A stretch of DNA of 53,464 nucleotides from Candidatus Eiseniibacteriota bacterium (GCA_005893295.1 VBOY01000007.1:27591-81054), one strand, 5' to 3'. Counted from the stretch's first letter, positions 34,139 through 41,364 are shown. Notes: generated from the sequence alone by a model not told the origin. Translations and numbers: made by a program.

Positions 34139-37100
34139 ATGTCCCCAATCCTGAGCCTTCCGCTGGCCTTGATCCTGGTCGGGCTGCCCCATCTGCCCGG
34201 GCTCCCGGGCGTGCCTGGTTTGCCCAAGGCCGTGAAGGACATTCGCAAGCACCTGCCCAGGCACGTGGCCCCGCTGGACAGCCTCCCGCCGGCATGGAAG
34301 CCGGCGCCCTTGCTCGCCCTCGAGAACCAGTTCGTGCGGGCTCGACTCGCCGCCCCGCGGCCCGGGCAAGACCCGTGGGGCCTTAAGTTCGCCTATGACC
34401 CGCGGCAGGTTCGCGTCAGCTTCGACGCCGATTCGGGCACGGTCCGCTACGCCACCGGGCTGGCAAGCGTCGAGGTGGGAGAGGCGTCGCGAGCGCCGGT
34501 GAGCGCGTTTGCCCGCGATCTCACGCGTACGAACTTCGATCGGCTGTGGCGTGACGCGGCTCGCCAGCAGCTCCAGGCCACGGCCGCCGGCGCGCAAGCG
34601 CAAGCTCGCACGCCGGCCGCGAGGACGGGGATGTCGTTCGAGCTTCCCTCGCCGCTGCCCAAGCGAGTCCAAAGCCTGCTCGGCCCCGGTGGTCCTTCGC
34701 TCAACATCTCGGGCTCGGAGAGCATCCGGCTCTCGGGCCAGAGCGATTGGACGAACCAGACGATCGGCCTGCTGGGCCAGAAGCGATCGCTGTTTCCCTC
34801 GCTCGACATGCAGCAGGACCTCGACATCCACCTGGAAGGACGGTTGTCGGACCGGGTCGGCGTCAACCTGCTCCAGAACTCCGCCAACCAGATCCCGCTC
34901 GAGAACCGGATCGCGATCAACTACAAGGGCGATGAGGACGACCTGGTGCAATCGCTCGACCTCGGCAACACCAGCCTCACCCTGCCGGGGACGCAGTACG
35001 TGTCGTACAGCGGCAAGAACGAGGGCCTGTTCGGCATGAAGGCGACCACGCGCATGGGTCCGCTCGACGTGACGATGCTCGCCAGCAAGCAGGAGGGGAG
35101 GAGCGAGCGGGCCTCCTATGCGGGAGGATCCTCGAGCCAATTCCAGACCCTGCTCGACAAGGACTACGTACGCGGCGTCTATTTCATTCTCTACGATCCC
35201 AACGTGAATCCGGACACCCTGCAGGACATCGACGAGAGCACGATCCGGCTCTACCTCGACGAAGGCACGTACGTGAACCAGATCAGCACGGTGCGCGGGC
35301 GGGCGTTCGTGGACCCGAACCGAGCGTGTACGGACCCGCTGGCGTGCCCGGATGGCCCCGACGCGGATACCGCCCCCGACACCACTCAGTCGCTGCGCGG
35401 CACGTTCCGCCTGCTCAAGCTGGGGGCCGATCAGGACTACGAGATCATGGGCGACGTCTACGGCCCCTACGTCAAGGTGATCCGGATGCGGACCGCGGTC
35501 ACGGGAGAGAACCAAAAGCTCGCGGTCACATACCGCTATCGGCCGGTGGCGAGTGGACAGACGTCCGCGCTGCCGATCGACGTCGGCGGCCAGTCGGTGG
35601 CGGACACGATCCCAGACGCGGATGGCGCGGGCGCGCTGACGATGAAGCTCCTGCGCGCCCCGCTCAACCTGCTCCCCCAGGACGCGAGCGGCAATTTCGA
35701 CACCAATCCCGCCACCGCCCCCTTCGCCGCCACCCGCGAGCTCGAGCTGAAGAACTTCTACCACCTTTCCGGCCAGAGGATCGATCCCAAGACCTTCCAG
35801 ATCGCGATCCGCAAGGGCGATGACGTTCCGCCTCGGACCACGGTGCGGCCCGGAGTTCCCTACATCCAGGTGCTGGGGCTCGACAACTACGACGAGACGA
35901 GCGGCTTCGTAGATTACAGCCACCACGGCCACGACAATCGCGTCGACGGCACGGCGCCGACGAGCAACTTCCGCGCCTTCGTGGACTTCGACGACGGAAT
36001 CCTGTTCTTCCCGGATCCACGACCGTTCGCCCCGCGCGTCGGGAGCGACGCCGAGGGCGGCACGCCCTTCGATCGCAGCGTCGACGCGGTCCTGTTCCGG
36101 GACGAGCGACTGGTGGGCCCTCCGGGCTCGGCGAACGAAGCCAACCCGGCGATCTACGACAAGCGCACCGTGCTCCCCACCGACCGCGAGTACTCGATCG
36201 ACGTCCAGTTCACCGCCGCCCAGGCCAGCAACGAGATCTCGCTCGGGCGCACGAACATCATCGAGGGCTCGGAGGTCGTGACCATCAACGGCCAACCGCT
36301 GACCAAGGATCGCGACTACCGCATCGACTACGACCTCGGCCGGGTGACCTTGATCCGCCAGCTGGGTCCCGCCGACCAGGTCAACGTCGGCTACTCGTAC
36401 GCCCCGCTGTTCCAGCAGGCCGGGCGCACGCTGGTAGCCAACTCGTTCCGTTACGAGGGACCCGCTCGGAGCTTCGGTGGGGCCTTCCTCTACGAGAGCA
36501 AGGGAGCCCAGGATCTGAGGCCCCGGCTCGGCGAAGAGCCTTCGCGCGTGCTGATCGGCGACCTCAACACGGAATGGCACTTCAAGCCCGACTGGATCAC
36601 CCGGCTGGTCGATCGTCTGCCCGGGGTGAGGACCACCGCTCCCTCCGAATTCAACGTCGCCGCCGAGGTCGGGGCGTCGTTCCCCAACCCGAACACGCGC
36701 AACGAGGTCTTCATCGACGACATGGAGGGCGTGCGCGACGCGGTGTCGGTATCCATGACGCCGGAGCGCTGGCGCTGGACCAGCATTCCGCAGCGCAACC
36801 AGGCTCAGGACGTCGAGGAGGCGGCCGACAGCCGGATGGATGCGGAGATCCACTGGTACTCGCCGCTCAACGTCGTCAAGGAGCGGGAGCTCAAGCCTTC
36901 TCTCTCGAACGCCGAGGGCGCCCAGAACACCCATCAGAGCCTGGCGATCTCCCTGCCGAGGCGGCCGACCGCCGCCGTCAGCGGACAGCTCCTGTGGGCC
37001 GGGCTCACCTACCCGATCGACCCGGTCGGGATCGATCTGTCCCGGGCCCAGTTCATCGACGTGTGGGTGAATGACTTCCGAGACATCCCGCGGGTCCGAA

Positions 37101-40435: not shown

Positions 40436-41364
40436 TGTTTCGGCCGAACACCTCTGCCGGCGCGGTGCTGCTCGTGATCACGCTGACCGGGATCGCGTGC
40501 GGGGCAGGGCCCCTCTCGGTCGACGGCCGGCGCGCGCACGCCAGAGTCGTTTGGCAGGTGGGGGCCGGTCCGCGCATCCCTGGTTCACCGGGGCATGCGC
40601 GAGTCCACGAGTGGCTCGGCCAAGAGCTCTCCCGTCTTGGCGCCCACGTGGAGCATCAGAGCTGGATCGACACCACGCTAGGCCGACCGCTGCCGCTCAT
40701 GAACGTGATCGGCCACTTCCGTCCCGCACGCGGCGGGGTCGACATGCGGCCGATCGTGCTGTGCGCCCACTACGACACGCGACCCTGGTGCGACGAGGAT
40801 CCAGATTCCGCGCGCCGCGACCTGCCGCTGCCGGGGGCCAACGACGGAGCCTCCGGGGTGGCGGTTCTGCTCGAGGTGGCGGAGATCATGGCCCGCCGCC
40901 GGCCACCCGTCCCCGTGGATCTCGTGTTCTTCGACGGAGAGGACCAAGGACGGTCGGAGCGACCGAACGATTTCGCGCTCGGCGCGCGCGGCTATGCGCG
41001 CGCCCTGAAAGCCCCCCGGCCGGTGGCCGCGTTCCTGTTCGACATGGTGGGGGACCGAGATCTCGACATCTTCCTGGAGGCCAACTCCGCGGAGCGCGCG
41101 ACCAACATGGCCGGGTTGGTGCTCGATGCGGCGCGCGCCACGAACGCCCGCAGCTTCCACGGTGAGGTGCTCCATCGCATCGTGGACGACCACTTGCCGC
41201 TCCTCGACGCGGGTGTCCCGGCCGTGGACATCATCGACTTCGATTTCCCGGTCTGGCACACCCATCGAGACGAGCCGGACCAAGTATCGCCCGCCAGCCT
41301 GGCCGAGGTGGCGCGGGTCGCCGCCTGGCTGGTCTTCGAGAGCCCGCTGGCGCGCAGGCGCTAA
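40435..41364 (+). CDS. Secreted M28-family glutaminyl-peptide cyclotransferase-like protein
   Basis: Hydrophobic leader ending GIAC; RIPGSPGHARVHEWLGQELSRLGA; IVLCAHYDTRPWCDEDPD; GANDGASGVAVLLE; LVFFDGEDQG; FLFDMVGDRDLDIFLE; FPVWHTHRDEPDQVSP. Confidence 0.82.
   Translation: MFRPNTSAGAVLLVITLTGIACGAGPLSVDGRRAHARVVWQVGAGPRIPGSPGHARVHEWLGQELSRLGAHVEHQSWIDTTLGRPLPLMNVIGHFRPARGGVDMRPIVLCAHYDTRPWCDEDPDSARRDLPLPGANDGASGVAVLLEVAEIMARRRPPVPVDLVFFDGEDQGRSERPNDFALGARGYARALKAPRPVAAFLFDMVGDRDLDIFLEANSAERATNMAGLVLDAARATNARSFHGEVLHRIVDDHLPLLDAGVPAVDIIDFDFPVWHTHRDEPDQVSPASLAEVARVAAWLVFESPLARRR

What the first reader, a model, noticed from the sequence alone, without database searches (positions are those of the whole stretch)
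34139..41364. SprA (T9SS translocon) gene translationally coupled to a glutaminyl-cyclase-like M28 enzyme
The sprA stop (TGA 40433-40435) shares a base with the ATG (40435) of an M28 protein carrying glutaminyl-cyclase-like motifs (GANDGASG, FFDGEDQG, FDMVGDRDL, VWHTHRDEPDQVS). In Bacteroidetes, N-terminal Gln cyclisation is linked to exported proteins (the 'Q-rule'). A QC fused into the sprA transcription unit would suggest co-evolved export and N-terminal capping. One secreted protein here fits (redoxin at 5351-5929, predicted ...ALA|QTETK), but that is a single case.
Basis: partly seen in the sequence, partly recalled or inferred. Interest (0 to 1): 0.8.

Follow-up and report, generated by a model that had tools for sequence, protein, structure and literature searches.

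The report
Ancient sprA–glutaminyl-cyclase gene pair

Summary
SprA (34139-40435; TIGR04189, 494 bits) ends in TGA, whose A is the first base of the ATG of a 309-residue M28 protein (40435-41364). That protein is a type II glutaminyl cyclase by PDB sequence matches, predicted fold, tree and active-site residues, not an aminopeptidase. The host is Candidatus Eisenbacteria, not Bacteroidetes.

The pair is conserved. In 34 of the 41 Eisenbacteria genomes with this QC it lies directly next to sprA on the same contig; in the other seven the two genes are on different contigs. The pair also occurs in Marinimicrobia, Zixibacteria, KSB1, Calditrichota and one Gemmatimonadales genome, with different downstream genes (rimP or prmA). 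In 61 sampled Bacteroidota genomes, 0 of 19 strong QCs adjoin sprA.

The three Eisenbacteria genomes of one family that lack this QC all carry the unrelated plant-type (type I) QC, as if the activity had been replaced.

The Q-rule part fails. In the window's genome only about 7-12% of predicted signal-peptidase-I substrates expose Gln (8 of 12 in a Bacteroidota control), so the redoxin is a chance-level example.

Best reading: a periplasmic lipoprotein QC, ancestrally coupled to the SprA translocon, capping a minority of exports. I found no earlier report of the pair in the held papers.

The parts
34139..40435 (+). sprA: T9SS outer-membrane translocon SprA/Sov, 2098 aa
   Evidence: TIGR04189 494 bits (cut-off 200), PF14349; PDB 6h3i F. 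johnsoniae SprA E=3e-30
40433..40437 (+). TGATG: stop codon of sprA overlapping the start codon of the QC gene by one base; no clear Shine-Dalgarno sequence before it
   Evidence: sequence; same overlap in many relatives
40435..41364 (+). type II (animal/bacteroidal-type) glutaminyl cyclase, M28 fold, predicted lipoprotein (Cys22)
   Evidence: PF04389; best PDB matches bacterial QCs; AlphaFold model pLDDT 93.3; invariant D137, E169, D170, D203, D252, W274, H275
40498..40500 (+). codon of Cys22, predicted lipidation site of the QC (LTGIA|C22); atypical lipobox in this sequence but aligned with a clear lipobox Cys in relatives
   Evidence: alignment A1; N-termini
41495..41983 (+). rimP, 130 bp downstream of the QC; followed by nusA and infB (the conserved downstream neighbours in Eisenbacteria)
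   Evidence: RimP_N; synteny
41899..43386 (+). nusA (true start lies inside this ORF)
   Evidence: NusA_N, KH_5 and others
43202..45673 (+). infB (true start lies inside this ORF)
   Evidence: IF-2, GTP_EFTU

Best explanation
A bicistronic unit, sprA-QC. The second gene encodes a zinc-dependent type II glutaminyl cyclase, exported by Sec and probably lipid-anchored on the periplasmic side. It converts the N-terminal Gln exposed by signal peptidase I on a minority of exported proteins into pyroglutamate, protecting them from aminopeptidases. One-base stop/start overlap couples its translation to that of the SprA translocon. The pairing is old: it occurs in several FCB-group phyla, so a QC was tied to the T9SS translocon outside the lineage that obeys the Q-rule. 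In sampled Bacteroidota the genes are apart and the Q-rule is general; here they are together and it is not. Shown: gene identity, overlap, conserved pairing, QC-type active site and fold, absence of a Q-rule in the sampled proteins. Inferred: catalytic activity, lipidation, co-translation, and a substrate set tied to T9SS.
For: QC identity: best solved relatives are Parabacteroides, Tannerella, Porphyromonas and Bacteroides QCs; predicted fold matches QCs in all 50 listed rows; D/E/D/H metal and catalytic residues invariant, with the bacteroidal Asp170 and QC Trp274 instead of the aminopeptidase Glu and Tyr; aminopeptidases of the same phylum fall outside the QC family (100/97). Conservation: sprA-QC-rimP-nusA-infB in all 18 QC-bearing loci fetched; 34 of 41 genomes adjacent; sprA directly upstream in 27 of 69 named-genome loci with at least 1 kb upstream, in at least 6 phyla; downstream gene differs (prmA in KSB1, Calditrichota and Marinimicrobia), so the pair is not merely carried by the rimP operon. 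SprA and QC distances correlate (rho 0.42; 0 of 2000 permutations reach it; 0.63 without Eisenbacteria). Functional replacement: all three f8 genomes without type II QC, and G012, have a type I QC, whose G014 copy matches solved type I QCs at 1e-65. T9SS context: CTD cargo 60 and PorV family 9 in this genome, PorU-type match.
Against: No activity was measured. Bacteroidal Trp193 is Phe180 here, and a loop before the PgPhe294 equivalent is shorter (alignment). Gln at +1 is rare in this genome, also among T9SS cargo (3 of 24 at the chosen site, 4 of 24 at any allowed site), so few substrates are visible. QC relatives occur in Chloroflexota and Poribacteria loci with no sprA beside them, so QC is not T9SS-specific. 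The replacement rests on about two independent events (family-level p=0.11).
Confidence: 0.72

Rival explanations
1. The Bacteroidetes Q-rule applies: the QC caps most signal-peptidase-I substrates and its place behind sprA reflects general export capping.
For: The enzyme type is right, and Gln at an allowed site is more frequent in Eisenbacteria family f11 (10 of 26) and Marinimicrobia (5 of 12) than in Zixibacteria (1 of 15).
Against: Window genome: 3 of 43 at the chosen site and 5 of 43 at any allowed site, close to the composition expectation of 10-11% computed on the looser sets, while the same method gives 8 of 12 in Bacteroidota. T9SS cargo 3 of 24. In sampled Bacteroidota the pair is not adjacent.
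Confidence: 0.06
2. The M28 protein is an ordinary periplasmic aminopeptidase that happens to sit behind sprA.
For: Generic Pfam and NCBIfam hits name M28 or aminopeptidase; several databases call relatives amino/carboxypeptidase.
Against: QC-diagnostic residues, solved-structure relatives, fold ranking and tree all place it with QCs; a type I QC is present where it is missing; adjacency is too conserved for accident.
Confidence: 0.07
3. Neighbourhood without function: a shared ancestral gene order was kept by inertia, because the pair lies next to essential translation genes.
For: In Eisenbacteria the whole block sprA-QC-rimP-nusA-infB is syntenic, and family f8 lost the QC with the rest intact (L054).
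Against: In KSB1, Calditrichota, Marinimicrobia and Zixibacteria the downstream genes differ while sprA-QC stays, and tight overlaps recur in distant phyla.
Confidence: 0.15

Closest known systems
Bacteroidal type II glutaminyl cyclases (PgQC, TfQC, BtQC, PdQC; PDB 6qql, 6qro, 7d1d/4fuu, 3tc8)
   Same: Fold (TM-score up to 0.84 on the query), 31-32% identity, Asp-Asp-His zinc site, catalytic Glu and Asp, active-site Trp, probable lipoprotein anchor
   Different: Encoded directly behind sprA; Phe in place of Trp193; shorter loop near PgPhe294; host without a Q-rule
Bacteroidetes Q-rule pathway (PMC5837995, PMC10653852)
   Same: Type II QC in bacteria that also have SprA, PorV, a PorU-like protein and CTD cargo
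   Different: +1 Gln is a small minority here; Q-rule authors report it only for Bacteroidetes and judged the T9SS link a coincidence of distribution
T9SS translocon SprA/Sov (6h3i; PMC10994853)
   Same: SprA above the TIGR04189 cut-off, with CTD cargo and PorV proteins in the same genome
   Different: Outside Bacteroidota; no GldM hit (control silent); translocon gene coupled to a QC
Type I (plant-type) QC, PF05096 (3mbr, 3nol, 2faw)
   Same: Same reaction class; the G014 and G015 copies have lipoprotein-like N-termini
   Different: Unrelated beta-propeller; found in family f8 where the sprA-linked QC is missing; not seen next to sprA

Membership tests
Type II glutaminyl cyclase (bacteroidal group) | Zinc ligands Asp149, Asp183 (Asp, not Glu), His299 of PgQC | tested here: met
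   D137, D170, H275 invariant in 38 homologues; ligand list from PMC7948796
Type II glutaminyl cyclase (bacteroidal group) | Catalytic Glu and Asp (HsGlu201, HsAsp248), DDH Asp (HsAsp305), and Asp of AHWD (PgAsp126) | tested here: met
   E169, D203, D252, D114 invariant; mapping by alignment
Type II glutaminyl cyclase (bacteroidal group) | Trp298/Phe294 pair instead of the aminopeptidase Tyr/small residue | tested here: met
   W274 invariant; F271 aligned with the Phe by phmmer with a one-residue gap
Type II glutaminyl cyclase (bacteroidal group) | Trp193 conserved in bacteroidal QCs | tested here: not met
   Phe180 in the aligned position; a subgroup trait, not a trait of all type II QCs
Type II glutaminyl cyclase (bacteroidal group) | Fold closer to QCs than to aminopeptidases | tested here: met
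   All 50 listed Foldseek PDB rows are QCs or proteins since reannotated as QCs (reannotation in PMC7948796)
Type II glutaminyl cyclase (bacteroidal group) | Cyclisation of N-terminal Gln | not testable with these tools
   Needs an enzyme assay
Type II glutaminyl cyclase (bacteroidal group) | Lipoprotein anchor | tested here: inconclusive
   Cys22 present and conserved in families f1, f10, f11, but the lipobox of this sequence is atypical and f3, f5, f6 lack the Cys
Bacteroidetes Q-rule system | Gln at +1 in about half or more of SPI substrates | tested here: not met
   3/43 to 5/43 in G000, 8/12 in the Bacteroidota control
Type IX secretion system | SprA translocon | tested here: met
   TIGR04189 above cut-off; matched in 48/48 genomes of the phylum
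Type IX secretion system | C-terminal sorting domains on cargo | tested here: met
   TIGR04183: 60 matches in G000, nearly all above cut-off; 48/48 genomes
Type IX secretion system | PorV and PorU | tested here: met
   PorV_fam over the cut-off in 48/48; PorU model matched in 48/48 and over the cut-off in 33/48; in G000 only a contig-cut 525-aa piece, 265 bits, below cut-off
Type IX secretion system | GldL/GldM motor | tested here: inconclusive
   GldM TIGR03517 0/48, but no control genome rang either; GldL not tested

The most novel reading that the evidence does not exclude
QC is an original accessory of the T9SS translocon of the FCB group. The Bacteroidetes Q-rule grew out of a QC that first served SprA-linked export, after which the two genes separated. 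The QC may still cap a specific translocon subunit or cargo class in Eisenbacteria, Marinimicrobia, Zixibacteria, KSB1 and Calditrichota.
Probability: 0.35. Interest if true: 0.8.

Novelty: new variant of a known kind. Interest (0 to 1): 0.6.

Why it matters
The Q-rule papers noted that T9SS and Gln-capping co-occur but judged the coincidence not mechanistic and called Gln-capping specific to Bacteroidetes. A deeply conserved, overlapping sprA-QC pair in phyla outside Bacteroidota, plus replacement of the QC by an unrelated QC where it is lost, gives independent genetic evidence that the two functions are linked, and shows that the link does not require a general Q-rule. It also supports a T9SS outside Bacteroidota (SprA, PorV, a PorU-like protein, many CTD proteins). 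The question of what QC does for T9SS becomes testable in organisms where its substrates may be few.

Tried and rejected
The signal-peptide predictor is my own, checked only on a small Bacteroidota sample (12 proteins).
(2) QC-lacking family f8 as a no-QC control for the Q-rule: withdrawn, because f8 has a type I QC; the contrast was not significant anyway (p=0.25).
(3) SprA itself as the QC substrate: 8 of 29 SprA N-termini with a predicted signal peptide allow Gln at +1, mostly in Marinimicrobia, KSB1 and Calditrichota; family f1, including the window, shows no clear cleavable signal peptide, so it is not a general answer.
(4) T9SS cargo as special substrates: G000 4/24, G045 6/14, G013 0/19, G015 3/5; suggestive only for f11.
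(5) Promoter and terminator scan of 33700-42100: no promoter-like site, no terminator-like site between QC and rimP, totals as expected by chance.
(6) GldM search uninformative: no control rang.
(7) Tree backbone among phyla is poorly resolved (24 open forks, bootstrap not settled), so I do not claim vertical descent of the QC for every phylum.
(8) Papers: no hit for QC + type IX secretion + synteny, Eisenbacteria + type IX; QC + sprA gave only unrelated papers among the 20 listed of 73. Only open-licence PMC papers were searched.

Full report
OBSERVATION. ORF 34139-40435 (+) encodes 2098 residues and ORF 40435-41364 (+) 309 residues; TGATG at 40433-40437 gives a one-base overlap of stop and start. 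SprA is secure: NCBIfam TIGR04189 494 bits against a cut-off of 200, Pfam SprA_N, and Flavobacterium johnsoniae SprA (6h3i) as the solved relative. I see no clear Shine-Dalgarno sequence in the bases before the second ATG, which fits translational coupling; that is an inference.

HOST. The genome is not Bacteroidetes. The phylum draw contains G034, whose contig C23 (201,491 bases) corresponds to MFFQ01000023.1, Candidatus Eisenbacteria bacterium RBG_16_71_46; contigs of G040 and G041 likewise match records named Candidatus Eisenbacteria by length.

WHAT THE M28 PROTEIN IS. Its best solved relatives are bacterial type II glutaminyl cyclases: 3tc8 (2.6e-40), Tannerella 6qro (1.6e-39), Porphyromonas 6qql and 7cje. 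PMC7948796 names the features that separate these QCs from aminopeptidases. Mapped through the alignment, the zinc ligands are D137, D170 and H275, with Asp instead of Glu at the second as in bacteroidal QCs; the catalytic pair is E169 and D203; D252 of DDH and D114 of AHYD are present; W274 replaces the aminopeptidase Tyr; R116, P117 and D120 match the PgArg128, Pro129, Asp132 loop. The zinc ligands, E169, D203, D252, D114, W274 and R116 are invariant in 38 homologues; D120 is nearly so. Trp193 of bacteroidal QCs is Phe180 here. An AlphaFold model (mean pLDDT 93.3) matches QCs in all 50 listed rows of the PDB. Aminopeptidases from the same phylum have EE, SDH and Tyr in the matching motifs and fall outside the QC family with 100/97 support. 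It is therefore a type II QC by sequence and fold; activity is untested.

CONSERVED PAIRING IN THE PHYLUM. In 48 Eisenbacteria genomes (36 genera, 11 families, one class) SprA is matched in all. A strong QC relative (E below 1e-20) is in 41. Comparing the coordinates by hand, in 34 of the 41 the QC lies directly next to sprA on the same contig; in the other 7 the two are on different contigs of fragmented assemblies. All 18 QC-bearing loci that I fetched read sprA-QC-rimP-nusA-infB. The starts fall within a few bases of the sprA stop in most, often in the same one-base overlap.

ACROSS PHYLA. A scan of named genomes with the QC alignment gave 80 loci, kept as the best of 593, so biased towards close relatives. 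A SprA profile hits directly upstream on the same strand in 27 of the 69 with at least 1 kb upstream: Eisenbacteria 5/5, Marinimicrobia 8/8, Zixibacteria 4/4, KSB1 2/2, Calditrichota 3/5, Gemmatimonadota 1/5, one MAG labelled Bacteroidota, and three unnamed; none in Chloroflexota (0/12) or Poribacteria (0/6). The downstream gene is rimP in Eisenbacteria but prmA in KSB1, Calditrichota and Marinimicrobia, so what is conserved is the pair. SprA and QC divergence are correlated over 31 linked loci (Spearman 0.42, 0 of 2000 permutations; 0.63 over the 14 non-Eisenbacteria loci).

BACTEROIDOTA. In 61 sampled genomes SprA is in 47 and a strong type II QC in 19; none of the 19 is adjacent, and those sharing a contig are about 23 to 630 kb apart. 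Against 34 of 41 in Eisenbacteria this gives Fisher p=3e-10, ignoring relatedness. All 19 lie in genomes with SprA; none of the 14 without SprA has one (p=0.003, same caveat).

REPLACEMENT. The three genomes of family f8 lack the type II QC; in G015 sprA is followed at 87 bp by rimP (L054). All three carry the unrelated type I QC (PF05096, E 5e-85 to 2e-96), and so does G012 (family f7, partial, E 3e-35), also without type II QC. Among the 41 genomes with type II QC only G002 and G011 have a strong type I QC. The G014 type I copy matches Xanthomonas-, Zymomonas- and papaya-type QCs (3mbr at 1e-65) and, like a G015 copy, has a lipoprotein-like start. By genome p=0.0024; by family, with only two events, p=0.11. 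I searched for this only after seeing the gap in f8, and it came out as expected. It is the best indirect evidence that the sprA-linked enzyme is a working QC and that the activity is needed.

Q-RULE. With a home-made signal-peptide predictor, Gln at any allowed +1 site was 8/12 in a Bacteroidota genome, 5/12 in a Marinimicrobium, 10/26 in Eisenbacteria f11, 5/43 in the window's genome (3/43 at the chosen site), 1/15 in a Zixibacterium, and 4/47 and 4/13 in family f8. On the looser sets composition alone predicts about 10% per protein. T9SS cargo in the window's genome gives 3/24 at the chosen site. The Q-rule is thus not met here, and one redoxin proves nothing. The intermediate values in f11 and Marinimicrobia are unexplained; samples are small.

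T9SS CONTEXT. The genome carries 60 TIGR04183 matches, 9 PorV-family proteins and a PorU-type piece at a contig start beside a PorV gene, so SprA is not a stray. GldM was not found but the control was silent. Published surveys place T9SS only in Bacteroidetes (PMC4793230) or in the Fibrobacteres-Bacteroidetes-Chlorobi group (abstracts).

MECHANISM. Most likely the QC is made by coupled translation right after SprA, exported, held in the periplasm, probably by a lipid, and caps those exported proteins that expose Gln. Which ones is unknown. PMC10653852 supplies the likely purpose: protection from aminopeptidases. The Q-rule of Bacteroidetes may be an expansion of this older arrangement; that last step is speculation.

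Noticed in passing
G000:C101:20-2619 (L071): A PorU-type C-terminal piece (NF033707, 265 bits) at the contig start is followed by a PorV-family gene; the same PorU-PorV neighbourhood recurs in many Eisenbacteria genomes.
   Followed up: partly
L124:12841-15357, L125:11520-14829: Downstream of sprA-QC-prmA in Marinimicrobia and Calditrichota lie a protein with a PorZ/PorU-like C-terminal stretch and one or two PorV/PorQ-family genes, a T9SS gene cluster around the pair.
   Followed up: partly
L198, L203, L197 (G045, family f11): Several proteins, mostly with T9SS sorting tails, have mature starts of the type QY[MLI][YF]xDxNGxG or GQPFGAP after the signal peptide: a possible QC substrate class in family f11.
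   Followed up: partly
window 31481-34008 (-): LptF/LptG-type ORFs diverge from sprA across a roughly 130 bp gap; a similar divergent gene lies before sprA in KSB1 (L109:1933-3213) and other Eisenbacteria.
   Followed up: no
G002, G011: Two Eisenbacteria genomes seem to have both type I and type II glutaminyl cyclases.
   Followed up: no
L053 (G013:C1:1492000-1511999): In this one-contig genome SprA is only a 1439-aa open frame and is no longer next to rimP-nusA-infB.
   Followed up: no
Bacteroidota sample: None of the 14 Bacteroidota genomes without SprA has a type II QC; all 19 strong type II QCs are in genomes with SprA.
   Followed up: partly
L111, L140, L150, L160 (Chloroflexota): Chloroflexota carry a close branch of this QC family with an N-terminal membrane segment and no sprA beside it; its role is open.
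   Followed up: no
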